A program made the position numbers and the translations under genes. A DNA stretch of 64,000 bases, taken from NCBI RefSeq assembly GCF_900103955.1, contig NZ_FNIL01000004.1:120000-183999 (forward strand), read 5' to 3'. The DNA is from Alkalicoccus daliensis (GTDB taxonomy: Bacteria; Bacillota; Bacilli; Bacillales; Salisediminibacteriaceae). The notes under the pieces are model-generated. The model was not told where the DNA came from. It worked only from the letters and a program-made list of their open reading frames with translations, and did no database searches. Positions 80-38,312 of the stretch are shown piece by piece (positions within the stretch are counted from its first letter, which is position 1; every line of letters begins with the position of its first letter).

Positions 80-1087
80 TCACGAAAGTACGGAAGGGGA
101 TAATTCTATTGCGTCCTTCAATGCTGCAATTAAGGAATCTTCACTTGCAATGTTTTTACCAGCAATGTCAAAAGCTGTCCCGTGGTCTACACTTGTTCTT
201 ATAATAGGAAGGCCGACCGTGATATTTACGCCTGCTTCAATCCCAAGAACTTTTATGGGTCCGTGGCCTTGGTCATGATATTGTGCTACTACAATATCAA
301 AATCTCCTCTTTTTGCCCTGAAAAATAATGTATCCGCAGGCAATGGGCCTGTGACATCAATTCCTTCTTCTTCGGCTTTTTTTACTGCCGGTATTATTTT
401 CTCCTCTTCTTCTCTGTTACCAAATAATCCGTTTTCCCCTGCATGAGGATTAATGCCACATACACCAATCCTTGGACTGGCATAGCCTGCTTTTTTTAGA
501 GTCTCATCTGCCAGTTTGATTACTGAATACTGTCTTTCTACGTCAATCTTATTAATTGCATCTATAAGCCCCATATGGGTAGTTACGTGAATAACTTTTA
601 ACCCTGGGGCAGATAACATCATGGCAAAGTTATCGGAGTTCGTCAGGTCTGCTAATATTTCAGTGTGCCCTGGATATAAGTGACCCGCTTTATGCAGAGC
701 TTCTTTATTCAAAGGAGCAGTGCAAATACTTTGGATACTTTTTTCATTTGCCAAAGAGATAGCTTTTTCTAAATATTGAAAGGCAGCTTCTCCTGCATCT
801 TTGGAAACTTCACCAAACGGCAGGTCAGCAGGTACATTTCTCATATCGATCACATCAATGGTACCGTAAGAAAACGCTCCTTTCTCTGGCATTTCAACTG
901 CATTTAATTCTTTCTCAGTGCCAGTTACTTTTAAAGCCTTCTTTAGTCTTTCTTTGTCTCCTACTACCAACGGTCTACATTCTTCATACAAATCTTTATG
1001 GTCAAGTGCTTTGACTATGATTTCAGGACCTATTCCTGCAGGATCTCCCATTGTTATAGCCACGATAGGTTTTTCAGTTCGTTTCAT
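80..1087 (-). CDS. pdxA2: PdxA2-type 4-phosphate acid dehydrogenase (decarboxylating)
   Basis: A 335-residue member of the PdxA family: metal- and NAD-dependent oxidation of a 4-phospho-3-hydroxy acid followed by decarboxylation. Visible motifs are GDPAGIGPE near residue 14, CTAPLNKEA near 122, GHTE near 140, NPHAGE near 215 and YHDQGHGP near 270; the three histidines are the expected divalent-metal ligands. Bacillaceae normally make pyridoxal phosphate through PdxS/PdxT, and this gene sits in one operon with a DUF1537 kinase. That pair is known from D-threonate and D-erythronate catabolism, where it yields dihydroxyacetone phosphate and CO2, so a catabolic role is far more likely than vitamin B6 synthesis. 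The start has the ribosome site GGAGGTAAG. It is last in the operon. The exact substrate is inferred. Confidence 0.88.
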   Translation of the reverse strand: MKRTEKPIVAITMGDPAGIGPEIIVKALDHKDLYEECRPLVVGDKERLKKALKVTGTEKELNAVEMPEKGAFSYGTIDVIDMRNVPADLPFGEVSKDAGEAAFQYLEKAISLANEKSIQSICTAPLNKEALHKAGHLYPGHTEILADLTNSDNFAMMLSAPGLKVIHVTTHMGLIDAINKIDVERQYSVIKLADETLKKAGYASPRIGVCGINPHAGENGLFGNREEEEKIIPAVKKAEEEGIDVTGPLPADTLFFRAKRGDFDIVVAQYHDQGHGPIKVLGIEAGVNITVGLPIIRTSVDHGTAFDIAGKNIASEDSLIAALKDAIELSPSVLS

Positions 1088-1147
1088 TATCTTACCTCCA
1101 ACAATCTATTTATCTCAGAAGATGATATTTAAAAATCCTGCCACCCA

Positions 1148-2449
1148 CTAGTCCATCATTAAATCTGGCAGGAATGTTACGATTTCCGGAAAAACAATGA
1201 TTAAAAGAATAGATAATAGGTAGACGCCTACAAAGATCAGAATATGCGGCAGCATCTTTAATACGTTCGTACCCGCAACTTTTGCTGCTAATAGGCTTGA
1301 TAGCCCATATGGTGGTGTAACCGTGCCTAATCTAATTGACATAACTGTTACAATACCCGCTACTACTGGATTGATTTCTAACCCTTGCATTACAGGGAGC
1401 AGTAGAGGCACAAAAATGAGCATTGCAGAGTTTGGCTCCATGAAGGTTCCCAATACAACGTAAAGCAAAACAAGCATTAATAAGAAAACGAAAGCACTTA
1501 CATTGTTAGTTAAAAGAAACTCAATCAGCGGATCCATTGTCTGATAATATGTGAGCACCCATGACAGCAGTGCTGCTGCAGCAATTAATATATAAATAGT
1601 CGCTGAATCCAATGTTGCTCTTTTCGTAACTTCAACATATTTCTTTACATTACGCTGCTTTTTAATAAAAAATGCTACGAACACAACATATACTACAGCA
1701 ATACTCGCTGCTTCTGTCGCTGTAAATACTCCACTCATGATACCAACTATAACTACGAGGAATAAGCTGATAGGAAAGATACTTTTCTTAAGAGCTGTTA
1801 ATTTTGATAATTTCTCATCGTTGCTTAACCCGATCATTTCATTATCAATAGGTCCCACATCATTCTTTGATGCGTAATAATAAGCATAGCCCATCTGCGT
1901 AAAACCAATTAATATTCCCGGAATAATTCCGGCCATAAATAATGCAGCTACAGATGTCTGAGCCAAAGCCCCGTATACGATCAATAAAATACTCGGTGGA
2001 ATAATTGAGCCGATTGTCGATGAAGCTGCCGTCACAGTTGCAGCAAATTCTCTGCTGTAGCCTGCTTTGATCATCGCCGGAATGAGTATCTTACCTAATG
2101 AAGCTACATCTGCCACTGAGGAGCCAGAAATAGCACCAAAAAAGATACTCGTAATAATATTCATATGAGCCAGGCTTCCCTTTGCTTTTCCAACCAATGC
2201 TTTCGATATATAAATCAGATCATCAGTTACTCCAGTTAAATTCATGAGTCCGCCTGCGAAAATAAAAAGAGGAATTGCTAACAACGTGAAGCTCGAAAGG
2301 GAAGCAATCATTACAGAACTCGCCTGTGTCAAACTTACCATCGGTTCGAATATCAGAGGAATTGACGAAGCAATAACAATACTGAATACTACTGGCACAC
2401 CCAGAAGCAAGCAGAAAAAGAAAATTGCTACAATAGAAAGTAAAATCAT
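1148..2449 (-). CDS. dctM: TRAP transporter large permease (DctM family)
   Basis: A 433-residue, very hydrophobic integral membrane protein with about twelve membrane segments, the usual size for the large TRAP subunit. The family signature region SGSSVADVASLG, followed by the TIGSIIPPS loop, lies around residues 105-155. It carries the ion-coupled translocation path for a small organic acid delivered by the periplasmic-type binding protein. Its ATG overlaps the TGA of the small permease gene by 4 nt, so the two are translationally coupled. The neighbouring kinase and dehydrogenases suggest a sugar acid as cargo; the sequence alone does not give the ligand. Confidence 0.95.
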   Translation of the reverse strand: MILLSIVAIFFFCLLLGVPVVFSIVIASSIPLIFEPMVSLTQASSVMIASLSSFTLLAIPLFIFAGGLMNLTGVTDDLIYISKALVGKAKGSLAHMNIITSIFFGAISGSSVADVASLGKILIPAMIKAGYSREFAATVTAASSTIGSIIPPSILLIVYGALAQTSVAALFMAGIIPGILIGFTQMGYAYYYASKNDVGPIDNEMIGLSNDEKLSKLTALKKSIFPISLFLVVIVGIMSGVFTATEAASIAVVYVVFVAFFIKKQRNVKKYVEVTKRATLDSATIYILIAAAALLSWVLTYYQTMDPLIEFLLTNNVSAFVFLLMLVLLYVVLGTFMEPNSAMLIFVPLLLPVMQGLEINPVVAGIVTVMSIRLGTVTPPYGLSSLLAAKVAGTNVLKMLPHILIFVGVYLLSILLIIVFPEIVTFLPDLMMD

Positions 2450-2955
2450 TCTTTATTCACCTCGTTAGGACCATCTCTCCAAATATCTTTGAAATTTAAT
2501 AAATGGAAGTAAAGCATGAATATAGAGCCTATAAGAAAAGCAGAATAATAGTAAGTTAAAGATGGTCGAAAAGGAAGAAAACTGATCGATACTAGTTCTG
2601 TTCTGTTTAACCCTGCATCAAATGCAGCGAGTCCAATGAAAAGCAGAATTATTACTCCCGCAAGAGTTAATATATATACAATAACTTCCTTTATTTTCGC
2701 GAGTCGTTTACTCAAATATTCAGTGAAAATATCAATTTCAAGGTGTTGTTTTTCTTTGATTGCAATAGCCGAACCCATAAATACCAGCCACATAATGCAA
2801 AACTTTCTTATTACTTCGATTTCTGGAATTGAATATGAAAAAACATAACGCGCTATAACTCCTGTAAAAAGAGCCAACGTAAGTGTAATCATTGTAATAA
2901 CATTGATTGACTCTGTAACATATTTAAGCGTTGCATTTATCTTCTTAAATATCAT
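2446..2955 (-). CDS. dctQ: TRAP transporter small permease (DctQ family)
   Basis: A 169-residue protein with four predicted membrane segments, typical of DctQ. The conserved pattern of a Trp-Leu-Val-Phe-Met-Gly segment followed by a charged 'KEKQHLEIDIF' stretch is seen around residues 55-75. It pairs with the DctM subunit whose start overlaps its stop. The ATG is preceded by GAAGGGATAAT. A 119-nt gap containing a strong hairpin separates it from the binding-protein gene upstream, so the permease may be made at a lower level than the binding protein. Confidence 0.93.
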   Translation of the reverse strand: MIFKKINATLKYVTESINVITMITLTLALFTGVIARYVFSYSIPEIEVIRKFCIMWLVFMGSAIAIKEKQHLEIDIFTEYLSKRLAKIKEVIVYILTLAGVIILLFIGLAAFDAGLNRTELVSISFLPFRPSLTYYYSAFLIGSIFMLYFHLLNFKDIWRDGPNEVNKE

Positions 2956-3030
2956 ATTATCCCTTCGTCCATTTAATTATTTGGTTCATTTGTCTTACTC
3001 GTCCATTCTACGTTTTCTTTATATAATTTG

Positions 3031-3064
3031 GGCTGTCTTTTCTTTTATAAAAGAAAAGACAGCC
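3031..3064 (-). promoter_or_regulatory. Intra-operon stem-loop behind the TRAP binding-protein gene
   Basis: A perfect 14-bp inverted repeat (3031-3044 and 3051-3064) with a 6-nt loop sits between dctP and dctQ. In the minus direction it is not followed by a T run, so it looks more like an mRNA-stabilising or partially attenuating hairpin than a full terminator. Such hairpins commonly raise binding-protein output over permease output. Confidence 0.65.
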
Positions 3065-3074
3065 TTCTTACGAA

Positions 3075-4166
3075 TTAGTTAAAAATCTCTTCCATTTCAT
3101 CCACTACACCGTGCTCTTCTGCAATTTCATGCATTTGCTCGCGGGAAATTTCAATGAATGCTTCTCTGTCTGGATTCGTAAATGTGATATCGAATTCTGT
3201 TTCTAAAGTTTCCATATCTTCTTCTGCCTGTTCAAATGCCATTTGGATATACTCCGGCTGGACAGTTTCTGAAGCTCTGGAAATCGCTTCTTTATGCTCT
3301 TCATCAAGCTCTTCAAATCTTTCTCCGTTCATTACGACAAAGCCAAGCGTCAGGTTATGCTGAGTACGTGCTACATAATCTGCTACTTCTCCGAAGCGCT
3401 GCTCAATCATGGCATCCAGGCTGTTTTGTGAACCGTCTACTACACCAGTTTGTATTGCTGTATATACTTCATTGAAATCTATTGTAGTAGGGTTCGCACC
3501 TAGACTTCTCCACCACTCCATCTCCGTCGCAGACCCCCCGCTTCTCATATCTTCTCCCTGAAGGTCTTCATGTGATTCAATCGGGAAGGTACTGATGATA
3601 TTTCTTTCCAGTCCACCTGCATACATTACGGTTTCAAGCCCTGGATTTTCTCTCAATAAATCTTCAAAATAAGAAAGGGAATCACCTTCGTTTACTACAG
3701 TTTCAAAATGTTCTTGATCCTCAAAAAGATAATTTGTTGCTAAAACATCAAATACAGGTTCATGCTCTGCAAACCATCCGGAGTCAGAGTAAATAATATC
3801 GATGTCCCCTGAAATAACTGACTGGTATAAACTTGATGCATCTCCCACTTGACCGCCGGTGTGCACCGTAACTTCAATCTCGCCGTTGCTCTCTTCGTTA
3901 ATTTCTTCCGCAAAGGCCGTTAACGCTTGAGCCAACAAGGCGTCCCCTGGGTTTATCGTTGCCGCTACCAAGGAAACTTCAGCATCTCCCGTTTCATTAT
4001 TACTTTCATTATTTGCTGCTTGATTGCCATTGTTATTCTGACCAGCGCTTGCTTCTTCGTCATTGTTGCCATCACCATTACACCCAACAAGCATAGCTCC
4101 TGCGCCTACTATAAATAATCCCTGAATAGATCGACCAGCAAAAGAATTCGTGAAATAATTTTTCAT
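3075..4166 (-). CDS. dctP: TRAP transporter substrate-binding lipoprotein (DctP family)
   Basis: A 363-residue extracytoplasmic solute receptor. It begins with a lipoprotein signal peptide (charged start, hydrophobic core, then AMLVGCNG with the lipid-accepting Cys near residue 29), followed by an Asn/Glu-rich linker typical of salt-adapted Gram-positive secreted proteins. The mature part shows DctP features, including a 'MRSGGSATEMEW' segment and the 'NEVYTAIQTGVVDGSQNS' stretch that lines the acid-binding cleft. An ATG 20 codons upstream is possible, but this start has an AGGAGG site seven bases away and gives a proper signal peptide. It is cotranscribed with dctQM. The ligand is probably a carboxylate; which one is unknown. 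Confidence 0.92.
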   Translation of the reverse strand: MKNYFTNSFAGRSIQGLFIVGAGAMLVGCNGDGNNDEEASAGQNNNGNQAANNESNNETGDAEVSLVAATINPGDALLAQALTAFAEEINEESNGEIEVTVHTGGQVGDASSLYQSVISGDIDIIYSDSGWFAEHEPVFDVLATNYLFEDQEHFETVVNEGDSLSYFEDLLRENPGLETVMYAGGLERNIISTFPIESHEDLQGEDMRSGGSATEMEWWRSLGANPTTIDFNEVYTAIQTGVVDGSQNSLDAMIEQRFGEVADYVARTQHNLTLGFVVMNGERFEELDEEHKEAISRASETVQPEYIQMAFEQAEEDMETLETEFDITFTNPDREAFIEISREQMHEIAEEHGVVDEMEEIFN

Positions 4167-4210
4167 AATAATTACCTCCTGATTTTTAAAAAAATTTTCT
4201 TTGGCACCTC

Positions 4211-5299
4211 TTACTTTTTGATCCACTCTTTAGATAGCTGAACATGTCGGATCCATTTTCTTAAATAGGTGAACGAAATGTGAAGCTCGTCATCTTTTTC
4301 AACAATGGAAGGATACGAAAACTCTGGTTCCTCAATATCTTCACTGAGATCTTCTTTACTGATCACTTTCTTTTTATAGCTCCATGTGATTCCCTCATCT
4401 TCTGAAAGCGCAAGCGTTAACGGAGATCTTACAACTCCCCATATTGAGGTAGCTTCTTTTTCATCGCCTGACTTCACAGTTTCCATATCGGCTTTATCAA
4501 ACCATGGAGGCCTGTTCTCTTTAGGGGGATTCTCCGCTGCATTAGTGTCATTAAAAATCAGCATCAGATTTCCATTCTCAAGCCGTAAAGATTGAATTGA
4601 TGCATTATTGTTTACTAACTCAGTCTTTACTGGAGCAGTCCACGTTTTGCCTTCGTCAGATGAGCTCGTTGTATAAACATAGTCTGCCTTACGACTTCTG
4701 AAAAAACCTACAAGTTTATCGGATGCTTTTACAATACTCATATGAACCAGCCCTTCACTTTCTGGCACTTCATATTCTTTCCAAGTTTCACCATGATCCT
4801 CTGATATTTTCACTACGCTATGGTCACTTCCTAAGAATCCTGACTTTGATTTTTTACTGTAATAAGCAGGCAATATGATTTTATCACCAATAAGCAAAGG
4901 AGGATTCCTTACAAAAGAGCCCGCTTCACCAAACAGAGTTTCTGCTTCACTCCATGACTCTCCCTCATCTTTTGATATTCTGCACTTAACGACAGCAGAA
5001 TCTTGATGAATAAGATTCTGGGCCGTATAGAGCATCCAAAGATCTCCATTTGTGTTTTTAAACAAAATAGGGTTCTGTTCGGATTTTTCAGGGTCACCTT
5101 TTAAGACTATCGGTTCATTCCATTCACTTTTTTGGTTTTCTAAACGGGAAACCAGAATTGAAATGTCCGGCTTTCCTTCCCTTGACCCTCCGAACCAGGC
5201 ACATAGAAGATCTCCATTGTCCAGCACCATTAAGTTTGAAGCGTGATTATGAGGAAAGGGGGATTTAATATCATTGACTCGATTGAAAGTGTTGTTCAT
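4211..5299 (-). CDS. Sialidase-fold (BNR repeat) protein, cytoplasmic
   Basis: A 362-residue protein of the six-bladed propeller sialidase/BNR family. Asp-box-like motifs (S-x-D-x-G-x-x-W) recur: SKDEGESWSE, SEDHGETWKE, SSDEGKTWTA and SEDEGITWSY. The N-terminal 'CAWFGGSREGKPD' segment matches the arginine-containing first blade. There is no signal peptide or membrane segment, so it should act inside the cell, which is unusual for a sialidase. I chose the ATG at 5299 because it has a clear AGGTGG site; an open frame reaches further upstream without one. It lies between an SDR gene and the TRAP binding protein. Its true substrate may be an imported glycoside or acyl sugar rather than sialic acid; 'sialidase' here names the fold. 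Confidence 0.8.
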   Translation of the reverse strand: MNNTFNRVNDIKSPFPHNHASNLMVLDNGDLLCAWFGGSREGKPDISILVSRLENQKSEWNEPIVLKGDPEKSEQNPILFKNTNGDLWMLYTAQNLIHQDSAVVKCRISKDEGESWSEAETLFGEAGSFVRNPPLLIGDKIILPAYYSKKSKSGFLGSDHSVVKISEDHGETWKEYEVPESEGLVHMSIVKASDKLVGFFRSRKADYVYTTSSSDEGKTWTAPVKTELVNNNASIQSLRLENGNLMLIFNDTNAAENPPKENRPPWFDKADMETVKSGDEKEATSIWGVVRSPLTLALSEDEGITWSYKKKVISKEDLSEDIEEPEFSYPSIVEKDDELHISFTYLRKWIRHVQLSKEWIKK

Positions 5300-5349
5300 T
5301 TTGTTAACCACCTCACTGATAATTAGATTTATTTTAGTCTTTCGATATA

Positions 5350-6108
5350 TCAATTCATAAAAGATCCTCCATTTATATTAATAGTTTCTCCTGTAACAAA
5401 ATCTGATAAAGAAGAAGCTAAATATAAAACTGAATCAGCTATATTCTGTGGTGTTCCTAACCTATTCAACGGAATCCCAGCTAAAGCTCTAGCTCTATAT
5501 TCTTCTGTCCATTGCTGTGTCATCTCTGTCTCTACCGGTCCTGGACAAACACCATTTACATAAATGTTATCTTGGGCAAATTCATTCGCTAAATGCATGG
5601 TCAGATAATTAATCGCTGCTTTTGATGCTCCATAAGCCGGCGAAGCATTTTGATGTGGAGTTTTAGAAGCTTTAGAACTCATATTAATAATTTTTCCTGA
5701 CTGAGCTTTTACCATATGAGGCAGCGCTGCCTGGCAAAAATATAAACTTGCATTTAAATTAATATCTATTACTTTTTTCCATTCAGCAATGGACATGTCT
5801 AACGTAGAACTACGCATGTTAATACCTGCATTATTTACTAAAATATCTATCTTCTGAAAAGTATCTAAGGTACACTGAATTACTTTTTTAGCTGTTTTTG
5901 GATCTGCTGCATCTCCAGTGACAATAAAACATTTACTGCCTGTTTCTTCTATTTCTTTTGCTACTTCATTTAAAGTATCGGCGTCTCTTCCATTAATAAT
6001 TACTGACGCTCCATGGTTAGCCAGAGTAACTGCTATTGCTCTTCCTATTCCTCTTGAAGCACCTGTTACAATTGCCGTTTTATTTTCCAGCAGTGGTTCT
6101 TTATTCAT
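5350..6108 (-). CDS. SDR-family NAD(P)-dependent dehydrogenase
   Basis: A classical short-chain dehydrogenase of about 252 residues. The Rossmann motif TGASRGIG is near residue 15, NNAG near residue 88, and the catalytic YxxxK appears as YGASK near residue 155, with an upstream Ser in the NMSSKASK stretch. The C-terminal 'INGGSF' ending is typical of 3-oxoacyl-reductase-like or sugar-acid SDRs. Start choice is uncertain: ATG at 6108, or an in-frame GTG at 6120; neither has a strong ribosome site. It is in the TRAP/DUF1537 operon and probably interconverts a hydroxyl and keto group on the imported acid or its cleavage product. Confidence 0.88.
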   Translation of the reverse strand: MNKEPLLENKTAIVTGASRGIGRAIAVTLANHGASVIINGRDADTLNEVAKEIEETGSKCFIVTGDAADPKTAKKVIQCTLDTFQKIDILVNNAGINMRSSTLDMSIAEWKKVIDINLNASLYFCQAALPHMVKAQSGKIINMSSKASKTPHQNASPAYGASKAAINYLTMHLANEFAQDNIYVNGVCPGPVETEMTQQWTEEYRARALAGIPLNRLGTPQNIADSVLYLASSLSDFVTGETININGGSFMN

Positions 6109-6152
6109 AATATTTTTCACCCAGCTTTCTTTAAGAGGGTACTAATACTACT

Positions 6153-7421
6153 TCAACCCGTTGCATATCTAAACCTGTTAAGCGCTTTCAACATTACGTC
6201 TTGCGAACCAAAGCTTCCCGCTTTTGTAATCACATGCATTTTTTTATAAGAATCTACTGAACAGATCGGTACTCCCGCTTCCAATTCGTCAAGAAGAATA
6301 AGTCTGCTAACTCCTAGCTTTTTCATTACCTGATATGCAGTTTCTCCACCAGTAAGAAACAAGCACTCCACTCCTAAGTTTTCTACTAGGTGTAATGCAT
6401 ATTCTCCCAAGATACGAGAAAATTCTAAGCTTGCTTCCTCTTTCGTTCTTCCGGTCATTTCGCAGAAAACTTCACTTTGCTTTATATCTGTGGAAGAATA
6501 CAATACTATGTCCTTTTCATTCTTAAATGCTTGGTTTGTAACAGCTATAATTCTATTTTTTTCATCTTCATCAAATTCTTTTGTAATACTAACCTCAATT
6601 GCTTCTACAGCCTCACTTTCCAGTAAATTATTAAGCTGCAATCTTCCATGCTTGCTCATACTTCCAATTACGAAGAGTTTGGGACCTTTACTTTCTATTT
6701 TCACTTCTTTTTTTTCTTCTTTTTTCAGACCAAATGTTTCCGGAATATAGTTAAGAAGTCCAGCTGACCCTGCACATATAATTTTATATGGCTGTATGTG
6801 AAGAAACTCAGCAATTTTCCTTAAATCCTCCTCATGCAGGCTGTCCACCGTTATATAGTGAATCCCTCTTCTTTTGAATTCTTTCAGCTTTTTTCCTAAT
6901 TTTTCTCTACCTGCGTTTATATCTTCTGAGAAAAGATGTGCCACTTCTTTTTCAGTCTGTTTTTCCACAATTGTTTTTATATCTGATTCCAGAATTGGAT
7001 TAGTAGGATCCGCTGCTACTTCTGACTGATGAAGAAGTGTTTTATTCAACATATGATAGCCATTTATAATTTGCCTCCCGTTCGCAGGGTGGCCTGGGAC
7101 TACAAATATAAAATCTGGTAAATAATAATCATATAAAGCGTTGATTTCTGCTCCTATATTGCCTCTCATAGTAGAATCGATTTTTTTATAAATAAAAGAC
7201 GAATTGTAGTCCCTTTTTAAGCTTCTGCAGAACGTGAGAACTCTTTCGTACGCCTTCTCAGGCGTTAGTTCCCGGGAGTCTGTGTTTACTACAATGGTAG
7301 AAATCTCATTATTGTCATTTTCCAGGTTCAGTACTACCGAAGGCTTCAAGTTATAATCAACCAACTGCACTCCGGTGTCGCATGCTCCAGTAAGATCGTC
7401 GGCTATGATAGTAAAGTTCAT
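6153..7421 (-). CDS. DUF1537 four-carbon acid-sugar kinase family protein
   Basis: A 422-residue two-domain kinase. The N-terminal substrate domain begins with IIADDLTGACDTGVQL; the C-terminal nucleotide-binding domain carries FLTGGETA near residue 350 and ITKAGSFGSQD near residue 395. Studied members (DtnK, OtnK, LtnK) phosphorylate the 4-hydroxyl of D-threonate, L-threonate or D-erythronate. With PdxA2 in the same operon, the simplest reading is acid to 4-phospho-acid to dihydroxyacetone phosphate plus CO2. The start has a GAGGT site. The extra lyase, Fe-ADH and sialidase-fold genes suggest that the four-carbon acid is made inside the cell from something larger, or that the kinase has another acid as substrate. 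Confidence 0.88.
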   Translation of the reverse strand: MNFTIIADDLTGACDTGVQLVDYNLKPSVVLNLENDNNEISTIVVNTDSRELTPEKAYERVLTFCRSLKRDYNSSFIYKKIDSTMRGNIGAEINALYDYYLPDFIFVVPGHPANGRQIINGYHMLNKTLLHQSEVAADPTNPILESDIKTIVEKQTEKEVAHLFSEDINAGREKLGKKLKEFKRRGIHYITVDSLHEEDLRKIAEFLHIQPYKIICAGSAGLLNYIPETFGLKKEEKKEVKIESKGPKLFVIGSMSKHGRLQLNNLLESEAVEAIEVSITKEFDEDEKNRIIAVTNQAFKNEKDIVLYSSTDIKQSEVFCEMTGRTKEEASLEFSRILGEYALHLVENLGVECLFLTGGETAYQVMKKLGVSRLILLDELEAGVPICSVDSYKKMHVITKAGSFGSQDVMLKALNRFRYATG

Positions 7422-7432
7422 GGGTTTCTACC

Positions 7433-8602
7433 TCAATCAAGTAATTTACGATATAAATTTTTAATATCATCGAGCGAAAGTGCCACTGGATTATTGTCTA
7501 AGAGTCTGGTGACTTTTGATGCTGAAACTGCAAGATCTTCAATATCATCTTCAGTAACTCCGTATTCACTCAAATCTTGCGGAATATTCAACAGTTTGAT
7601 CCACTCTTCAATCTGACGGATAACCTTAAAGGAAATTTCTTCAGCAGAATCTTTTTCTTCATATACTTTCATCGCCTGAGCTACAAGCTTCATGCGTTCA
7701 TCCGGAATAGAGCTTAAATTAAAAGACATAACATGGGGAAGAAGCATAGAATTCGCAACCCCATGAGGGATATTAAATTTTCCACCCAGTGGGTACGCTA
7801 AGGCATGAACTGCAGCGGTTCCAGCACTTGTTAAAGCCATGCCTCCATACATGGAACCCACAATCATTTTCTCACGTGCTTCCAGTGACTTTCCATTATC
7901 ATAGGCTTCAACAATACTGTCACTTATCAATCGGATTGACTCAAGAGCGAACATATCACTGAGTTTATTTGCTTTATTAGAAATAAATGATTCTATTGCG
8001 TGTGTATAAGCATCCATTCCAGTTGCCGCCGTAATTGGTTTAGGCAACCCAAGGGTCAACTGCGGATCTACTACCACAAGCTGCGGTAGCAGATGTCTGC
8101 TTACTAAGCCAACTTTCAGTTCTTGTTCTGGAATAGTGACAATTGCGTTAGGAGTAACTTCTGACCCTGTGCCTGCTGTCGTAGGAATTAAAGCAGTCGG
8201 AATCCCAGGCAGTTTAACTTCTGCAGTATCAAGCATTTCTTTTAAAGTTTCTTTATTGGTCTTCAGAACAGATAGAAGTTTTGCAGCATCCAGGACACTG
8301 CCTCCCCCCACCCCAATAATGTAATCAAACTTTTTTCCTTTTAGATCATCTGCAATTTCCTGAATACTTTCTATAGTTGGTTCCGGGAGGACATTTGCTA
8401 CAGTTTCCACTGAAGCATCAAGTTTCTCTAATTGCTTGTTTACGTTCTCTAGCAGTCCGATATCAATAAGACCATCCTGAGTAACTAGCAACACAGATTT
8501 TATAGAAGGATTGAAAACTGAGAGCTTATCCGATAAAGTTTCAACAGAATTTTTTCCGGATACGATGAGATCTGCCGTTTGAAATTGATAAATATCCAAC
8601 AT
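7433..8602 (-). CDS. Iron-containing alcohol dehydrogenase
   Basis: A 389-residue group III alcohol dehydrogenase. The NAD-binding GGGSVLDAAK motif is near residue 95, and the metal-binding part contains DAYTHAIESF near 195 and further histidines in the AVHALAYPLGG and IPHGVANS segments near 265-280. It would oxidise or reduce a small aldehyde or hydroxy acid. The track frame opens with a GTG four codons earlier, but the ATG at 8602 has an AGGTG site nine bases upstream, so I prefer it. It follows the lyase gene by about a dozen bases and probably handles the aldehyde released by that lyase. Confidence 0.88.
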   Translation of the reverse strand: MLDIYQFQTADLIVSGKNSVETLSDKLSVFNPSIKSVLLVTQDGLIDIGLLENVNKQLEKLDASVETVANVLPEPTIESIQEIADDLKGKKFDYIIGVGGGSVLDAAKLLSVLKTNKETLKEMLDTAEVKLPGIPTALIPTTAGTGSEVTPNAIVTIPEQELKVGLVSRHLLPQLVVVDPQLTLGLPKPITAATGMDAYTHAIESFISNKANKLSDMFALESIRLISDSIVEAYDNGKSLEAREKMIVGSMYGGMALTSAGTAAVHALAYPLGGKFNIPHGVANSMLLPHVMSFNLSSIPDERMKLVAQAMKVYEEKDSAEEISFKVIRQIEEWIKLLNIPQDLSEYGVTEDDIEDLAVSASKVTRLLDNNPVALSLDDIKNLYRKLLD

Positions 8603-8614
8603 ATGATTCAACAC

Positions 8615-9487
8615 CTATCTTTTAGATTTATTAACAATCTTCGTTAGTTCCTCTTCTAATTCACCACTTACTTCAAATACCGGAGAGCGGGGAGGACCAA
8701 CGGGTGTCCCTTTAATTTCCAGCATCTTTTTATAAACAGCTGGTACAGTCGCTTTTGTAGAAGCGTTGCGGATGCTTCTGAGCTGTTCCTGCGCTTTTTG
8801 AGCTTTCTCGAAGTTTCCTACTTTCCAGTGATCGTAAATTGAAAGTGCTATTTCAGGAAAGATATTTGCCGTTGCTGCAACCGCTCCGGAACCTCCCGCC
8901 ATTAAAGTCCAGTATATTAAGGAATCTGCTCCCGCCATAACCGAGAAATCATCGTCTGTTGCCTCAATATATTGAAGAATGTTGTCAAAGTTACCGCTGC
9001 TATCTTTAATACCTTGAATATTTGGAATTTTCGAAAGTTCCTTAACTGTCTTTGGCAGCAGTGAAACACCTGTCCGTGATGGCATGTTGTATAAAATTAT
9101 TGGAAGGCTGACAGCTTCTGCAATTTTTTCATAGTGCTTAATCAGCTCCTGCTGGGAGGGCGGATCGAAGTAAGGCGTAATTATAGACAAAACATCTGCT
9201 CCAACATCTTCCATCTTCTTTGAAAGTTCTATAACTTCTTTCGTACTGTTTCCCCCTGTCCCAACTGCAACAGGTACCCTTCCATTGACTTCATTTACTA
9301 CTACGGAGGCTACTTTTATCTTCTCCTCTGCACTTAAATTAAAAAATTCTCCATTTGTGCCAAGAGCGAATATTCCATGAACTCCCGCCTCTATTAATTC
9401 ATTTACAAGCTGGCGCGTTACTTCCTCATTTACTTCTTCTTCTTTAGTAAGTGGGGTTAACAACGCAGGTACTATTCCATTAAGCAA
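8615..9487 (-). CDS. Dihydrodipicolinate synthase/N-acetylneuraminate lyase family aldolase
   Basis: A class I TIM-barrel lyase of about 290 residues. Family landmarks are GTNGEF near residue 43, the catalytic tyrosine in LYNMPSRTG near 135 and the Schiff-base lysine in GIKDSSG near 160. Members condense or split pyruvate with an aldehyde (dihydrodipicolinate, sialic acid, 2-keto-3-deoxy acids). It is first in the catabolic operon, so a catabolic keto-acid aldolase is likelier than lysine synthesis. Start choice: an ATG at 9496 lies flush against the AAGGAG site with no spacing, whereas the TTG at 9487 is nine bases from it, so I prefer the TTG. Confidence 0.85.
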   Translation of the reverse strand: MLNGIVPALLTPLTKEEEVNEEVTRQLVNELIEAGVHGIFALGTNGEFFNLSAEEKIKVASVVVNEVNGRVPVAVGTGGNSTKEVIELSKKMEDVGADVLSIITPYFDPPSQQELIKHYEKIAEAVSLPIILYNMPSRTGVSLLPKTVKELSKIPNIQGIKDSSGNFDNILQYIEATDDDFSVMAGADSLIYWTLMAGGSGAVAATANIFPEIALSIYDHWKVGNFEKAQKAQEQLRSIRNASTKATVPAVYKKMLEIKGTPVGPPRSPVFEVSGELEEELTKIVNKSKR

Positions 9488-9501
9488 ATATCTCATCTCC
9501 T

Positions 9502-9699: not shown

Positions 9700-11490
9700 T
9701 TATTTTTGTTTTCCCATTTTTCTCCAAAGCGTCGACCTGGTAATTCCTAAACGCTTAGCTGTTTTTGATTGATTTCCATTTTCTTCCTTTAACACTTTTT
9801 GAATAATTTTATCTTCCAACTCTTCTAAGGTCTGCTTTGGCTCCAGATAAATATATTTATCCATATTGTCCTTGTTGCCGTTTTCATTTATTTCTTCTTT
9901 AGTAAACTCAAGGTAGGTTGACTGAGAATTCCTCACCAACTTTCTGATAGTGTTTCTTAACTCGGTGATATTCCCTTCCCAGGAACAATCTAATAAATTC
10001 TTTAATGAGTCAGGCTCTATTCCTACAACCTGCTTACCAAATTCTTCGTTAAATTTTAATATAAAAGTGTTTATAATTCCTTCTAAACTTTCTTCTCTGT
10101 GCCTTAATGGCGGAAAATAAATCGGATCTTCCGATAACAGCAATAGTAACTCTTTTTCCAACCTCCACTTATTTTCCTCCATGTCCTGCAAATCTCCAAT
10201 TAATGAAAATATCAGCTGTGCCTTTACCTCTTTTAAACTCTCAAGCAATTTATTCTGCTGAGCTTTAGAAGTTTGGTTGATCCCTCTTAAATGAATAACA
10301 GATTTTTTACTTTCTTTTTTTACTAATTCCAACAGTTTGTTGAATTTTTTAGTGTCCGCTTGTTCAATCTCTATTTCAATCACTCGACTCAGATCAAAAT
10401 TTTCTCTCTTACTGAATAAGTTTACAAACATTCTCTTTCCTGTTCCTTCTTCTCCTATGATCGTCACAGGCTTATTATCCTGCATTAACTTATGGGCAGT
10501 TATTTCAGCGTTGCGGTAAATATCTTCTGACATAATATATTGAGGAGTATTTTCCATTTCGGAATGAGAAAAGGTAAACGTGATTCCCGGCTCTTTTTTC
10601 CCTGTTACTTTTTTCAGCTGAATATAATGGAGCGTCTGCGCTTCAGGAGAATTAATGCGCCCACTTTGTACATTTATCACTTTCCCAAATTGATTTGTAG
10701 CCAGCTGAAAATGAATTAATTGGCTCGCTACCTGTTCTTCTATAATAGTTTTAAAGTAGGAATGTTCAGTGAATAAGGATTTTTTTTCTTTTAAAGAACT
10801 AAAATACATAAAGCGTGAAAACACAGAGTTATAGTACTTTATGCTTCCTGCTTCATCTACAAGACATATTCCATCTTCAATACGGTTAATTAAATTCTCA
10901 TAGATAGTAGCATTAGAACGGAACCGTTGAATTTCTGCATACATTCTCTCAGCATTTTCGAAAGCTTCTCTTACTGACTCCTCGCCTGAAGTAATCAGAA
11001 CGCCCTGCATACCGAATTCTCCAGCCAGCCTGACTGTCACAGCATCACCTACTATTATTTGTACGTTTTCCTGTTTTAATTTTAAAAGAGTGTCTTTAAC
11101 TTCTGACTCATCTTGAATTATCTTATAATCAATGTCTATGTTTATTACGTTAGATATTGACTCAAAACTGAAAATAATGTCTCTAAATCCTACCATTCCA
11201 ATTCTTGTATTATAACTTTTCAGCAGAGTGAGAATTCTTAAAATATCGTACCCAGATATTTTAATGCCGACCACAGGAATATCACTATGTGCCCGGATCA
11301 CTTTTGCAGTTCCTCCACGGCTTATAATAAAATCAAAACTTTCTCCTTGCTCCTCATAAAAATTAATAAGCTCTAATCCTTGATCTAAATCGGCTTCATG
11401 TATAATTAATTGAAACCCGTTCAACTTAGGCTGCATATTTCTGATTAATTCTGCCAGCCCTTTATAAGGAGCAATGACTAATACTTTCAC
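9700..11490 (-). CDS. PrpR_N-PAS-AAA-Fis regulator with degenerate AAA domain
   Basis: A regulator of 596 residues. Order: PrpR_N-type sensor (about 1-175, starting KVLVIAPYKGL), PAS (about 190-310), an AAA module related to sigma-54 activators (about 325-530), and a Fis-type helix-turn-helix at the C-terminus (NQSKTAKRLGITRSTLWRK). Walker A is intact (GEEGTGKR), and the FPPLRHREE stretch matches the family. The GAFTGA loop that contacts sigma-54 is missing, and the Walker B position reads SVIHLRGI without the acidic pair. It therefore probably controls sigma-A promoters, as TyrR-like proteins do. The GTG at 11490 is chosen for its AGGTGG site; the open frame extends upstream through an implausible hydrophobic stretch. 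It likely regulates the downstream operon in response to a sugar acid. Confidence 0.82.
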   Translation of the reverse strand: MKVLVIAPYKGLAELIRNMQPKLNGFQLIIHEADLDQGLELINFYEEQGESFDFIISRGGTAKVIRAHSDIPVVGIKISGYDILRILTLLKSYNTRIGMVGFRDIIFSFESISNVINIDIDYKIIQDESEVKDTLLKLKQENVQIIVGDAVTVRLAGEFGMQGVLITSGEESVREAFENAERMYAEIQRFRSNATIYENLINRIEDGICLVDEAGSIKYYNSVFSRFMYFSSLKEKKSLFTEHSYFKTIIEEQVASQLIHFQLATNQFGKVINVQSGRINSPEAQTLHYIQLKKVTGKKEPGITFTFSHSEMENTPQYIMSEDIYRNAEITAHKLMQDNKPVTIIGEEGTGKRMFVNLFSKRENFDLSRVIEIEIEQADTKKFNKLLELVKKESKKSVIHLRGINQTSKAQQNKLLESLKEVKAQLIFSLIGDLQDMEENKWRLEKELLLLLSEDPIYFPPLRHREESLEGIINTFILKFNEEFGKQVVGIEPDSLKNLLDCSWEGNITELRNTIRKLVRNSQSTYLEFTKEEINENGNKDNMDKYIYLEPKQTLEELEDKIIQKVLKEENGNQSKTAKRLGITRSTLWRKMGKQK

Positions 11491-11795
11491 AAAAATCACC
11501 ACCTGTATTATTATTATACACGTTTTATTTTTTAACAAAAAATTGTTCATTAATAAACTATTATAAAATTACCTACTCTATAAAATATACATTAAAAAAA
11601 AGATTCCCTTTTTAGATTATTAAGTTACTCCATTAAACTCCTCTAAAGAAATATCATATTTATTAAATTACGTATTTTGCTTTCAAGTCGGCTCAATCAG
11701 CTTAGGTTCAAAATAACTATTCAACACACTTTTAATAATTTTAGATCATACTTAGTCTAAGTAAGTAGTAATATAATAGTTTTTCTAAAATCGTT
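11491..11795. other. Intergenic region between regulator and AEC transporter
   Basis: About 305 bases, very AT-rich. A TATAAT at 11513-11518 (minus strand) could be the -10 box of the regulator. A small palindrome, ACTTAG-T-CTAAGT (11750-11762), lies shortly beyond the AEC stop and may be its terminator stem, though it is weak. I see no gene. Confidence 0.5.
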
Positions 11796-12719
11796 TCAAG
11801 CTAAAAAATTTGATAGATAAATAACAATAGTGACCGTTACTGCACTGATAATTGTGGAAAATAACACTATCTGTGCAGCAAGTTGAGGTTGATTATCGTA
11901 TTCTTCTGCAATGACCGCACTATTTACCGATGTTGGCATGGCAGAAGCGATAAACAAAACCTGGGCTATAGTTCCATTAATATCAAACAGAAAAATTATT
12001 CCTAGAGAAACTAAAGGACCAATTATTAATCTGATTATCAAACTCAGATATATAGAGGATAGCTGTTTCATAAATTTTAACTTTGCTACTTGAGCACCGA
12101 GTGTTAGTAGGGCAAGGGAGATCATCGCATCCCCTATGTAAGTAGAAGGAATTATTATTAATTCAGGAAGAGGTACCTTAAAGTAATTTAGAAGTACCCC
12201 TGCTAATAAAGCATATATTAAAGGCATTCTAAAATAATTAAGGACAGCTTGGGATTTACTGATTTTTATTGCTTGCAGAGAGAAAATTCCATAGGAAAAA
12301 ATAAATAAATTTTGTAAAGTCATTAGTACAACCTGCACAGACATAGCATATGGATCACCTTTAAATACAAGATCATTTACTGGAACTCCATAGTTTCCAG
12401 CGTTAAAAAACATAGCACTGTTAGAAAGTGTAGTTTTTTCATTTTTGCTTAAATTGATTGCCTTTGAGAGAAACAAGACCATAAAATGCAGAACAGCTAC
12501 AAGCAATACAAAAAATATAAAAACCTCAATAAATAAGCGTGCCGTGAAATCTGAATTATATAAAGTTATAAAAATAAAACCAGGTACGAAACAATAAATA
12601 TTTAATTTAGTTAACGTCTTTAAATCCATGTTATGTTTCTTTTGAAGAGCATATCCGATCGCAATCATTACGAAAACTGGTAAAACGATGTCTTTAAGAA
12701 TAATAAATAATTCTGTCAC
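11796..12719 (-). CDS. AEC (auxin efflux carrier) family transporter
   Basis: A 307-residue membrane protein with about ten membrane helices, the normal size for AEC permeases such as malonate or malate carriers. Family landmarks are the N-terminal 'LPVFVMIAIGYAL', an early 'NAGNYGVPVNDL' segment near residue 107 and the late 'ASAMPTSVNSAVIAEEY' segment near residue 260. It uses a GTG start behind AAAGGAGG. It lies on the same strand as, and upstream of, the regulator but 300 bases away, so it may be separately transcribed. Export or uptake of an organic acid linked to the neighbouring pathway is inferred from position. Confidence 0.88.
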   Translation of the reverse strand: MTELFIILKDIVLPVFVMIAIGYALQKKHNMDLKTLTKLNIYCFVPGFIFITLYNSDFTARLFIEVFIFFVLLVAVLHFMVLFLSKAINLSKNEKTTLSNSAMFFNAGNYGVPVNDLVFKGDPYAMSVQVVLMTLQNLFIFSYGIFSLQAIKISKSQAVLNYFRMPLIYALLAGVLLNYFKVPLPELIIIPSTYIGDAMISLALLTLGAQVAKLKFMKQLSSIYLSLIIRLIIGPLVSLGIIFLFDINGTIAQVLFIASAMPTSVNSAVIAEEYDNQPQLAAQIVLFSTIISAVTVTIVIYLSNFLA

Positions 12720-19543: not shown

Positions 19544-20953
19544 TTAAAACTTTGCTTTAGCCATTTTCTCAATAAGCTCCAGGTAGGAAGGCAGCAAATC
19601 TTTCAGTTCCTCCAGTTCTTCACCCCAGATTTCTTTGCTTAACAGCATTGCTGTTCTTTTATTTTTATCGTCTTCCTGCCATGCATCAGATAAGCGGCCA
19701 AGTACTTCTTTACTTTCAAAAAGCTTATATTCCATTCCTTTGTACTCTCCGAAAAACTCATCATTCTCCACCTTTACCGGCCTGTAGTAGCGCAGCACTG
19801 ACGCCATCGAGAAAGTGATTCGTTTCGGAGGCGTTCCATGGACTTCCAAATAGGATTTAACTACCGGGAGCAGCCGAACCCTGAATTTCGTGATGGAATA
19901 ACGGGCGATATCTGCTAATTGATGCGGATTAAAAGGATTTTGAAACCTATCCAGTACTTGGTCCCGGAAATCTGCCGTTTTCTTTTTATCCAGTGTCAGG
20001 ACTGAGCGTATTTCTTCCATTCCATTTTCCACAAACGTACCAAATAGCGGGTTCTTCATCACTTCCTGTACTGTTTTCAATCCATGAACGAGACCTGAGG
20101 CACACATCATCGTATGCGGCCCGTTCAGCAGCCTTACTTTCATTTCCCGGTAGGATTCTGTTTTATCCCAGGTGACGCTCAATCCTGCTTTCTGAAAAGG
20201 AAGCTTCTCCTTTACTTCTGCCGGACCGTCGATCACAAAGGAATAATACGGTTCTGTCACTACCAGCCAGTGATCCTTAAAATTTGTCTTTTCTTCTATT
20301 TTTGCTGCTTTCTCCTCTGAATACCCCGTTACGATCCGGTCTACCAGCGTATTGCAAAAATGAATATTTTCATTGATCCAGGCTGTAAATTCTTTCGGAA
20401 GTTCCCAGTCTGCCGCATGCTGCAAAATAATTCCCTTCAGCATTTCTCCGTTCTGTTCCACCAGCTCACACGGGAGAATGATCAGTCCGGGAGCCTCGGA
20501 CTTTCCTTTAACTGAAAATCGCCGGGAAAGAAACTCGGTCAGTTTCGCCGGGAAGGAAAGCGGGATATCATTTTCAGCCGGCGGCTCACATTCCTTGTAG
20601 ACGATCCCTGCTTCTGTAGTGTTTGATACGATACATTCCAGCTCATCTGATTCTGCCAGCTGCAGAATTTCCTGCCATTCGTTATAAGCGAAGGTGCGGG
20701 ATATAGTTGTAATTAACAGCTCCTGGTCTACCTTTTTCTGTTCGGAGAGCCCTCTTTCAGCTACATAAAACTGATAGTTCTGCTCCTGAAGAAAATCGGG
20801 GACACTCCCGTTTGGGGAGGGCTGATAAATGACAATGCTTCCTCCATATACTCCTGCACGCTTCATTTTTTCTATCTGCCAGTCAAAAAAGCCGCGCAGA
20901 AAATTCCCTTTGCCAAACTGAAGGATTTTTTCCGGTGTTTTATGGTTTTCCAT
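19544..20953 (-). CDS. uxaB: Tagaturonate reductase
   Basis: A 469-residue polyol-type long-chain dehydrogenase that reduces D-tagaturonate to D-altronate with NADH. The nucleotide-binding start 'ILQFGKGNFLRGF' is near residue 10, and the catalytic-site region 'KVRLLNGPHTMMCASGLVHG' near residue 265 matches mannitol/altronate dehydrogenases. It is third in uxaC-uxaA-uxaB, 14 bases behind uxaA. Length and context identify UxaB rather than fructuronate reductase UxuB. Together with UxaC and UxaA it converts galacturonate to KDG, which KdgK and KdgA elsewhere in the window consume. Confidence 0.93.
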   Translation of the reverse strand: MENHKTPEKILQFGKGNFLRGFFDWQIEKMKRAGVYGGSIVIYQPSPNGSVPDFLQEQNYQFYVAERGLSEQKKVDQELLITTISRTFAYNEWQEILQLAESDELECIVSNTTEAGIVYKECEPPAENDIPLSFPAKLTEFLSRRFSVKGKSEAPGLIILPCELVEQNGEMLKGIILQHAADWELPKEFTAWINENIHFCNTLVDRIVTGYSEEKAAKIEEKTNFKDHWLVVTEPYYSFVIDGPAEVKEKLPFQKAGLSVTWDKTESYREMKVRLLNGPHTMMCASGLVHGLKTVQEVMKNPLFGTFVENGMEEIRSVLTLDKKKTADFRDQVLDRFQNPFNPHQLADIARYSITKFRVRLLPVVKSYLEVHGTPPKRITFSMASVLRYYRPVKVENDEFFGEYKGMEYKLFESKEVLGRLSDAWQEDDKNKRTAMLLSKEIWGEELEELKDLLPSYLELIEKMAKAKF

Positions 20954-20967
20954 GCCTGCCCTCTTTT

Positions 20968-32097: not shown

Positions 32098-32853
32098 TCA
32101 GGAGCTCATCCAGCCGCCGTCTACACATAGTACGTGCCCATTTACATAGTTTGAGCTCTCTGAAGCAAGGAATACTACCGGACCTTTCAGATCTTCCGGC
32201 TTGCCCCAGATTTTTTTAGGGATTCTGGAAGTGATATAGTCATTTCTATCTTTATCTTCACGGATCGCAGCTGTGTTGTCAGTAGCGAAATATCCTGGCG
32301 CTATCGCATTAACATTTACCCCGCGGCTTCCCCATTCATTTGCAAAGGATTTTGTCAGGCCGGCTACCGCATGCTTGGTGGCAGAGTAGGCAGGCACCTT
32401 TAATCCGCCCTGAAACGAGAGCATGGAAGCTATGTTAATAATTCTGCCCGAGCCGTTTTCCAGCATATGCTTTCCAAAATCCCGGGTTAATTTAAAGACG
32501 GAATTCATATTTACATCCACTACATCGTGCCAGTCACTGTCGCTGAAATTTTCCGCCTGCTCCCGTCTGATAATACCGGCGTTATTTACGAGAATATCTA
32601 CTTTTCCCGTTTTACTGATGGCTTCCTGTACGACATCCGCCAGCTTATCCTGCTGCGCTAAGTCAGCATTTATCTCAAAAAATTTCCTGCCAAGCTTTTC
32701 TACCGCCGCTTTCGTTTCCGCTTGATCTGAATAACCGATACCGATAATGTCGGCTCCGGCTTCCGCGAGACCCAGCGCCATTCCTTGTCCTAACCCGCGT
32801 GTCGCTCCTGTTACTACTGCCGTTTTTCCTTCCAACGCAAATAGTGAATTCAA
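32098..32853 (-). CDS. kduD: 2-dehydro-3-deoxy-D-gluconate 5-dehydrogenase
   Basis: A 251-residue SDR that reduces 2,5-diketo-3-deoxygluconate (from KduI) to KDG. TGATRGLGQGM (residue 15), NNAGIIRREQAENFSD (88), YSATKHAVAGL (153) and the closing CVDGGWMSS are typical of KduD. The start codon is TTG at 32853, with GGAGTG six bases upstream; no suitable ATG exists. It is the last gene of the minus-strand operon that begins with kdgA. Confidence 0.92.
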   Translation of the reverse strand: MNSLFALEGKTAVVTGATRGLGQGMALGLAEAGADIIGIGYSDQAETKAAVEKLGRKFFEINADLAQQDKLADVVQEAISKTGKVDILVNNAGIIRREQAENFSDSDWHDVVDVNMNSVFKLTRDFGKHMLENGSGRIINIASMLSFQGGLKVPAYSATKHAVAGLTKSFANEWGSRGVNVNAIAPGYFATDNTAAIREDKDRNDYITSRIPKKIWGKPEDLKGPVVFLASESSNYVNGHVLCVDGGWMSS

Positions 32854-32937
32854 TCAAATCACTCCTGTTTGTTTATTTATGTTTGTATTTTTCCTGAAAC
32901 AAAAATCGGATAGAAATGTTCCCTGTGGCCATATTTT

Positions 32938-33963: not shown

Positions 33964-33996
33964 ACCTAATCATCCTTTCAAGACACTTATTTATTT

Positions 33997-36012: not shown

Positions 36013-36080
36013 TTGAAAACACACTTTCTGTAATTTAGTAGTTGTATCCACTTAGGAAAGGTGCGCCTGCAAAATATAAG

Positions 36081-37394: not shown

Positions 37395-37478
37395 CTTGTA
37401 CCTCTCCTTATTGGAGCATTATTTAGTTATCTATCTGTTTTCAGGCGCTGGCTGCTGTTTCCTCTGCATAAAAACCTG

Positions 37479-38294: not shown

Positions 38295-38312
38295 ATAATC
38301 ACCCTTTCATTA

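What the first reader, a model, noticed from the sequence alone, without database searches (positions are those of the whole stretch)
80..9496. Unusual TRAP/DUF1537/PdxA2 operon with a cytoplasmic sialidase-fold protein and a pyruvate lyase
The DUF1537 kinase plus PdxA2 is the known route for four-carbon sugar acids. Here it is joined in one operon to a DHDPS/NAL-type lyase, an Fe-ADH, an SDR and a BNR-propeller protein without signal peptide, all behind a TRAP importer. I know no described pathway with this set. A plausible model is import of a larger acid or glycoside, cleavage to a keto-acid and an aldehyde, oxidation to a four-carbon acid, phosphorylation and decarboxylation to dihydroxyacetone phosphate. 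It is the best candidate here for an undescribed system.
Basis: partly seen in the sequence, partly recalled or inferred. Interest (0 to 1): 0.72.

Follow-up and report, generated by a model that had tools for sequence, protein, structure and literature searches.

The report
Predicted operon for eating Dha sugar
A bacterial gene cluster, shared with distant relatives, that probably takes up a rare seven-carbon sugar acid of plant and algal walls (Dha) and cuts it into two common metabolites; no pathway for this sugar turned up in the searches made here, and the prediction can be tested directly.

The parts
80..1087 (-). PdxA2-type oxidative decarboxylase (predicted D-threonate 4-phosphate dehydrogenase)
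   Evidence: Pfam PdxA 366 bits; NCBIfam D-threonate 4-phosphate dehydrogenase 353.6 bits, below that model's cut-off 583; two general pdxA models score higher (388.2 and 372.0); E. coli cassette relative passes the D-threonate model with 681.9
1148..2449 (-). TRAP large permease DctM
   Evidence: 76-83% identical in the four other TRAP-type cassettes L020, L021, L066, L067
2446..2955 (-). TRAP small permease DctQ
3075..4226 (-). TRAP solute-binding lipoprotein DctP (likely start ATG near 4166, inferred from the signal sequence)
   Evidence: best solved relatives are two unspecified DctP proteins (E 4e-31 and 5e-31), then sialic-acid-binding proteins at E 4e-30 to 6e-30
4211..5353 (-). cytoplasmic sialidase-fold (BNR_2) protein; likely start ATG near 5299 (inferred)
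5350..6120 (-). SDR oxidoreductase, accessory
   Evidence: an SDR hit in 13 of 16 order loci (12 at 55% identity or more, own included; L060 at 34%) and in 7 of 15 proteobacterial loci at 26-32%
6153..7421 (-). DUF1537 four-carbon sugar-acid kinase (predicted D-threonate kinase)
   Evidence: PF07005/PF17042; best NCBIfam D-threonate kinase 265.5 bits against 196.3 for 3-oxo-tetronate kinase, cut-off 450 not reached
7433..8614 (-). Fe-dependent alcohol dehydrogenase, predicted D-threuronate reductase
   Evidence: best NCBIfam lactaldehyde reductase 297.3 bits (cut-off 523), ErcA 293.7; D201, H205, H270, H284 invariant in 16 of 16 aligned (their metal role recalled)
8615..9496 (-). DHDPS/NAL-superfamily pyruvate lyase, predicted Dha aldolase; start may be TTG at 9487 (inferred)
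   Evidence: of 15 aligned (14 cassette loci and L002) K164 and Y136 in 15, Asn48 (GTNG) in 11, R/K141 in 12; the genome's three other DHDPS-family genes read GTTGE twice and GSTGE once
9700..11550 (-). PrpR_N-type regulator without the GAFTGA motif
   Evidence: homologue in 15 of 16 order loci; no GAFTGA in it or in 14 further full-length homologues
11796..12719 (-). permease, labelled AEC from recall, beside the cassette also in two relatives
   Evidence: frame (not scanned with Pfam); homologue in L020 (45%) and L059 (29%)
19544..23891 (-). context: galacturonate genes (Mannitol_dh-type reductase, altronate-type dehydratase, UxaC)
32098..40948 (-). context: SDR, GH88/105, GH42, GFO/IDH, PfkB kinase, KDPG-type aldolase, KduI
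47219..52102 (-). context: rhamnose genes (RhaA, FGGY kinase, class II aldolase-SDR fusion)

Best explanation
[quoted passage not shown] Steps: (1) TRAP imports Dha or a small Dha glycoside (inferred). (2) The cytoplasmic sialidase-fold enzyme prepares it: removes an aglycone, opens a lactone or converts the ring form (reaction not known). (3) The DHDPS-type lyase splits the C3-C4 bond to pyruvate and D-threuronate (inferred). (4) Fe-ADH reduces the aldehyde to D-threonate (inferred). (5) DUF1537 kinase makes D-threonate 4-phosphate, and (6) PdxA2 oxidises and decarboxylates it to DHAP and CO2 (families known to do this; established knowledge, recalled). The NADH made in step 6 would balance the reductant used in step 4. 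Shown here: the genes, their conservation as a set, the interchangeable transporter, D-threonate identity of kinase and PdxA in one E. coli copy by curated models, the predicted fold of the sialidase-like protein, the carbon and stereochemical bookkeeping. Not shown: the substrate and any activity.
For: Five-gene core in 16 of 16 order loci with the BNR gene, 0 of 15 control DUF1537 loci of the same order, which look like plain threonate operons (DUF1537 + PdxA in 15, PrpR in 14, TRAP in 5). Same core in alpha-, beta- and gammaproteobacteria with SSS, SLC13-type, two kinds of ABC or tricarboxylate-type transporters. E. coli copy: kinase 533.8 bits (cut-off 450) for D-threonate kinase, PdxA 681.9 (cut-off 583) for D-threonate 4-phosphate dehydrogenase. 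Dha gives pyruvate + D-threuronate, and reduction gives exactly D-threonate; the ribo and arabino isomers would give L-erythronate, KDO gives arabinose. Lyase keeps the Schiff-base Lys and the Tyr but reads GTNG in place of GTTG in 11 of 15 aligned (residue roles recalled); its second-best NCBIfam model is a C7-diacid aldolase (200.5 bits, below the cut-off 396.7). Own genome has PdxS and two DHDPS genes that score higher on Pfam, so PdxA and this DHDPS are free for catabolism. A YhcH/NanQ-family protein sits in the E. coli and Pantoea copies (E. coli one above the family cut-off, below the anomerase cut-off). The rest of the window is largely a galacturonate/rhamnose/GH88-105/GH42 island. Plasmid records with a BNR relative are mostly of plant-associated genera. 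Dha occurs in RG-II as the D-lyxo form (PMC12168206, passage) and at 17% of intracellular and cell-wall polysaccharide sugars of Tetraselmis suecica (PMC7693365, passage).
Against: No activity or growth data. The window's own kinase and PdxA are below the D-threonate cut-offs, and two general pdxA models outscore the D-threonate one for the window PdxA; over 20 cassette kinases, D-threonate and 3-oxo-tetronate models both match all 20, so that call does not separate them. Three of the 14 cassette lyases aligned (L023, L028, L031) lack the Asn and the Arg/Lys and look like another subfamily. 3-deoxy-D-xylo-2-heptulosarate would give D-threonate as well. The neighbouring island fits pectin and rhamnogalacturonan-I as well as RG-II; no RG-II-specific enzyme was identified. 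A glycosidase in the cytosol fits badly with SLC13-type importers of small acids. The SDR has no assigned step. L031 lacks kinase and PdxA nearby; L025 lacks a detectable kinase. The known Dha hydrolase is described as five-fold propeller, GH143 (PMC6811678, passage), while this model is GH33-like.
Confidence: 0.52

Rival explanations
1. Same enzymatic logic, other substrate: the lyase cuts another 2-keto-3-deoxy acid (for example the D-xylo heptulosarate, or a methylated or lactonised relative) to pyruvate and a C4 aldehyde acid that is reduced to threonate.
For: The D-xylo isomer gives the same D-threonate; different lyase subfamilies serve the same cassette.
Against: Dha is the only naturally abundant compound of this type that I know (recalled); I made no search for the D-xylo form.
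Confidence: 0.16
2. Different chemistry: Fe-ADH acts as a dehydrogenase on an alcohol or on a ring-opened sugar acid, and the DHDPS-family protein is a dehydratase or retro-aldolase on a C5-C6 acid; the tetronate comes from another branch.
For: DHDPS-superfamily members include dehydratases (NCBIfam hit to 5-dehydro-4-deoxyglucarate dehydratase at 142.7 bits, below the 278 cut-off); an SDR is often present.
Against: No sugar-acid dehydratase family is among the ten proteins scanned, and D-threonate identity in the E. coli copy asks for a source of C4.
Confidence: 0.15
3. A KDO, sialic-acid or other long ulosonate pathway: NAL-like lyase after a sialidase-like enzyme, with DUF1537/PdxA handling part of the remaining sugar.
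For: Sialidase fold, SiaP-like binding protein, YhcH/NanQ-family protein in some copies.
Against: KDO would release a C5 aldose and Neu5Ac a ManNAc (recalled); no pentose or amino-sugar gene is among the operon's proteins; lyase scores far below the NanA cut-offs (144.4 against 382, 170.5 against 281).
Confidence: 0.08
4. A plain D-threonate (or tetronate) operon; lyase, Fe-ADH, sialidase-fold and SDR genes are passengers.
For: Kinase, PdxA and PrpR-type regulator without the others are the commoner arrangement among the DUF1537 loci I looked at in this order.
Against: Lyase, Fe-ADH and BNR come and go together: all three in 16 of 16 loci, together in 0 of 15 controls (one control has an Fe-ADH); order and transporter are reshuffled while the set stays.
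Confidence: 0.05
5. Vitamin B6 (PLP) salvage through 4-hydroxythreonine, as the authors of PMC12928451 relate the E. coli pair to PLP synthesis.
For: They connect the DUF1537/PdxA2 pair with PLP synthesis, citing work that is not held (passage).
Against: Own genome has PdxS; importer, lyase, Fe-ADH and sialidase-fold protein have no evident role there.
Confidence: 0.03

Closest known systems
D-threonate catabolic pathway (DUF1537 kinase DtnK + PdxA2)
   Same: Lower half: kinase and PdxA2; the E. coli cassette copy passes both curated models; PrpR-type regulator shared with plain operons of the order.
   Different: Adds a pyruvate lyase, an Fe-ADH and a sialidase-fold protein upstream; D-threonate would be an intermediate, not the imported substrate.
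E. coli BEN2908 genomic region 6 and the Sinorhizobium cluster mentioned beside it (PMC12928451, passages)
   Same: Same kind of set: CitT-type permease, EbgC/NanQ-like, COG4692, DapA, Fe-ADH, OtnK-type, PdxA, GlpR.
   Different: There uncharacterised and discussed as PLP-related; the passages give no pathway or substrate. TRAP and SDR are not in the listed set.
Sialic acid catabolism (SiaPQM, sialidase, NanA, NanM/NanQ)
   Same: Architecture: TRAP or SSS importer, sialidase fold, pyruvate lyase, YhcH/NanQ-family protein in some copies.
   Different: No amino-sugar steps; lyase far below NanA cut-offs; sialidase-fold protein is cytoplasmic.
GH143 Dha hydrolase of Bacteroides RG-II degradation (PMC6811678, passage)
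   Same: A sialidase-like enzyme on Dha, which is called a seven-carbon sialic acid analogue there.
   Different: Described as a five-fold propeller in a two-site enzyme; this one is a single GH33-like domain in the cytosol.

Membership tests
D-threonate pathway (DtnK/PdxA2) | DUF1537 kinase and PdxA2-type dehydrogenase encoded together | tested here: met
   both in 16 of 16 order loci
D-threonate pathway (DtnK/PdxA2) | kinase and PdxA above the curated NCBIfam D-threonate cut-offs | tested here: inconclusive
   window 265.5 against 450 and 353.6 against 583, so below; E. coli cassette copy 533.8 and 681.9, so above. D-threonate kinase is the best model for the window kinase, but a general pdxA model is best for the window PdxA
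D-threonate pathway (DtnK/PdxA2) | phosphorylation of D-threonate | not testable with these tools
   needs enzyme assay
OtnK/OtnI/OtnC route for L-threonate or D-erythronate | class II aldolase-like decarboxylase OtnC and isomerase OtnI in the operon | tested here: not met
   none of the ten proteins scanned hits those Pfam families (family names recalled)
DapA (lysine biosynthesis) | above the dapA cut-off | tested here: met
   248.3 against 206.15
DapA (lysine biosynthesis) | GTTGE active-site motif, as in the genome's two higher-scoring DHDPS genes | tested here: not met
   GTNGEF
N-acetylneuraminate lyase | above the nanA cut-off | tested here: not met
   144.4 against 382 and 170.5 against 281
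GH33 sialidase | sialidase beta-propeller (six-fold in GH33, per PMC6811678 passage) | tested here: met
GH33 sialidase | Tyr nucleophile with Glu partner, Arg triad, Asp acid | tested here: inconclusive
   Y347, R219, R309, R365, D63 and E59 in 15 of 15; His at 204 (14 of 15) and at 37 (14 of 14 with a residue there) where Glu and the first Arg are expected; the match to sialidase positions is by profile alignment and numbering offset, not by inspected coordinates
GH143 Dha hydrolase | five-fold propeller with Tyr-Glu pair | tested here: inconclusive
   model looks GH33-like; GH143 was not among the 50 rows shown, which excludes nothing
PdxA of B6 biosynthesis | PdxA is the genome's only visible PLP route | tested here: not met
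   PdxS family found once in the genome, 345.9 bits

The most novel reading that the evidence does not exclude
An undescribed bacterial pathway for Dha, spread over at least two phyla and matched in part in about a fifth of complete E. coli genomes, in which a cytoplasmic sialidase-fold enzyme with a Tyr/His active site carries out a reaction not known for that fold, followed by a Dha aldolase and a D-threuronate reductase, both new activities, feeding the D-threonate route.
Probability: 0.4. Interest if true: 0.78.

Novelty: new variant of a known kind. Interest (0 to 1): 0.62.

Why it matters
Rhamnogalacturonan-II is common in the human diet and present in vascular plant walls (abstract starts in the listing); an enzyme that releases Dha is known (PMC6811678, passage), but I found no account of how cells use Dha once inside. 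The cassette gives concrete enzyme assignments, explains a cluster annotated piecemeal as sialidase, DHDPS and PdxA in rhizobia, Pantoea and E. coli, and would correct those names. It also offers a cytoplasmic sialidase-fold family whose reaction is open.

Tried and rejected
Sigma-54 promoter: the -24/-12 pattern gave 27 matches in the window against 31.7 expected, none between the regulator and the lyase gene; the regulator and 14 full-length homologues lack GAFTGA (motif recalled), so a sigma-54 circuit was dropped.

pRL90085 (a legume-rhizosphere-specific transporter, PMC3333776) was followed because of its plasmid; the paper calls it CUT2-family, unlike the dipeptide-type ABC beside this cassette (passages), so it was dropped. 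SMb20144, called an organic acid/alcohol ABC transporter in PMC2848018 (passage), may be the cassette's importer on pSymB, but the record has no annotation and the source paper is not held; not used.

Remote BNR_2 homologues (the 13 loci, plus Haladaptatus L034) do not share the cassette: 0 of 14 have all five genes; only L002 has a DHDPS beside it; two of the 14 (L013, L014) gave no BNR hit in that script.

GH143 was not among the 50 fold rows, which excludes nothing. The phylum sample found no further BNR copy at E 1e-30: 1 of 398, the window's own genome. A second, weaker BNR match in G467 (L053) was not examined. Only 15 of the 315 plasmid records and 1 of the 1044 E. coli genomes with a match were opened.

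Literature: no described Dha or threuronate catabolism in the listings of searches (open-licence PMC only; several lists capped, e.g. 25 of 6,083 and 40 of 70). Two DUF1537 papers looked up by PubMed id (27294475, cited in PMC12928451; 27402745, recalled) are not held, so earlier mention there cannot be excluded.


Full report
What is there. A PrpR_N-type regulator precedes them (9700-11550). In transcription order: regulator, DHDPS-type lyase, Fe-ADH, DUF1537 kinase, SDR, BNR_2 sialidase-fold protein, DctP, DctQ, DctM, PdxA. The genome has PdxS and three other DHDPS-family genes; two of them score higher on Pfam than this one and read GTTGE, the third reads GSTGE. So neither PdxA nor this DHDPS is likely to be needed for biosynthesis.

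Is the set real? With the BNR protein as query, 4 of 60 genomes matched at E 1e-20, the window's own included (own, G016, G025, G053); the seven other genomes of the genus did not. A sample of 398 genomes of the phylum gave only the own genome at E 1e-30. With a profile, 15 of 397 genomes of the order matched, own included; I fetched the 12 that were new. In all 16 loci (own, L020-L022, L059-L070) the lyase, Fe-ADH, kinase, PdxA and BNR genes lie within the fetched 20 kb, though gene order, strand and transporter change. As a control I took 15 of the 26 fetched DUF1537 loci that come from genomes of the same order without a BNR match: 0 of 15 have all five; all have kinase + PdxA, 14 the regulator, 5 a TRAP, 1 an Fe-ADH, 1 an SDR, none the lyase. 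In the short flanks of all 30 fetched DUF1537 loci, only four show Fe-ADH and DHDPS, and these four come from BNR genomes. DUF1537 itself is in 164 of 397 genomes, including all 15 BNR genomes (hypergeometric p about 1e-6 without regard to kinship). The cassette is thus a plain threonate-type operon plus an upstream module.

Outside the order, 315 plasmid records hold a BNR relative. I opened 15 plasmid loci and one E. coli locus. One plasmid locus (Haladaptatus, L034) is a remote homologue without the cassette. Of the other 15 (two of them Sinorhizobium meliloti, so not independent), 12 have all five genes by tblastn; L035 makes 13 with a closer kinase query; L025 lacks a detectable kinase within the stretch (which begins at the record's start) and L031 lacks kinase and PdxA; lyase, Fe-ADH and BNR are in 15 of 15. 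L027 has kinase and PdxA fused in one 768-residue frame. In E. coli, 1044 of 5426 genomes match part of the Klebsiella cluster; no match covers 80% of the query, and the five rows shown cover 33% at 74% identity. The one I opened lies between glnS and nagE and reads GlpR, PdxA2, DtnK, then divergently Fe-ADH, lyase, TerC, sialidase-like, NanQ-like, SLC13 permease.

What it probably does. The E. coli kinase and PdxA pass the curated D-threonate models, and D-threonate kinase is the best model for the window kinase, below its cut-off; for the window PdxA two general pdxA models score higher than the D-threonate one. Over 20 cassette kinases both the D-threonate and the 3-oxo-tetronate model match all 20, which does not separate them. 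I take D-threonate as the likely C4 intermediate. What gives D-threonate through a pyruvate lyase and an aldehyde reductase? The lyase must release pyruvate and a C4 aldehyde that already has a carboxylate, since no aldehyde dehydrogenase is among the operon's proteins. The parent is a 3-deoxy-2-heptulosarate. Fischer bookkeeping shows that the D-lyxo form (Dha) and the D-xylo form give D-threuronate and then D-threonate, while D-ribo and D-arabino forms give L-erythronate; formulae balance. Dha is a known sugar of RG-II (PMC12168206, passage) and of Tetraselmis and prasinophyte coverings (PMC7693365, passage; PMC10762512, passage). D-threuronate is the dihydroxy analogue of aspartate semialdehyde (my inference), which fits a DapA-like lyase with Arg/Lys at 141 in 12 of 15 aligned and an altered GTNG motif in 11 of 15 (14 of the 31 cassette loci and L002 were aligned).

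Context. Much of the rest of the window is a pectin and rhamnogalacturonan island: UxaC, altronate-type dehydratase, a Mannitol_dh-type reductase, a binding protein and permease of an ABC system beside a sensor kinase and AraC-type response regulator, GH88/105, GH42, KDPG-type aldolase, PfkB kinase, KduI, rhamnose isomerase and an FGGY kinase.

Earlier knowledge. PMC12928451 (passages read) lists the E. coli copy as uncharacterised, relates the kinase/PdxA pair to PLP synthesis, and notes a Sinorhizobium cluster. No paper in my search listings gives a pathway. The lower half is known; the upstream module, its substrate and its logic appear new, hence 'new variant of a known kind'.

Confidence. 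That the five genes form one pathway: high. That D-threonate is an intermediate: about 0.75. That Fe-ADH reduces the lyase's C4 product: about 0.65. That the natural substrate is Dha: about 0.5.

Noticed in passing
window 9700-11550 and 14 homologues in L020-L022, L059, L061-L070: PrpR_N-type regulators with AAA and Fis-type parts but no GAFTGA motif, so probably not sigma-54 activators.
   Followed up: partly
window 9502-9515, minus strand: TGTAAGCGCTTAAA just upstream of the lyase start resembles a CcpA cre box (consensus recalled); carbon catabolite control is possible.
   Followed up: no
window 1-14000: G+C 0.32-0.39 against 0.40-0.50 in the rest of the window, and none of seven genus-mates has the BNR gene at E 1e-20: the cassette may have been acquired beside a resident pectin island.
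   Followed up: partly
L071 13576-14334 and L060 10535-11905: TerC-family and Nramp-family membrane proteins inside the cassette; perhaps metal supply for the Fe-ADH.
   Followed up: no
L027 6004-8310: DUF1537 kinase and PdxA fused in one 768-residue frame in Caballeronia.
   Followed up: yes
L031: Roseomonas variant with lyase, Fe-ADH, BNR, SDR and tricarboxylate-type binding proteins but no kinase or PdxA within the fetched stretch.
   Followed up: no
window 24331-32014: ABC importer genes beside a sensor kinase and AraC-type response regulator, perhaps for rhamnogalacturonan oligosaccharides.
   Followed up: no
window 9640-9700, minus strand: Inverted repeat followed by a T run after the regulator gene (read by eye), looking like a terminator; the lyase gene may then have its own promoter.
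   Followed up: no
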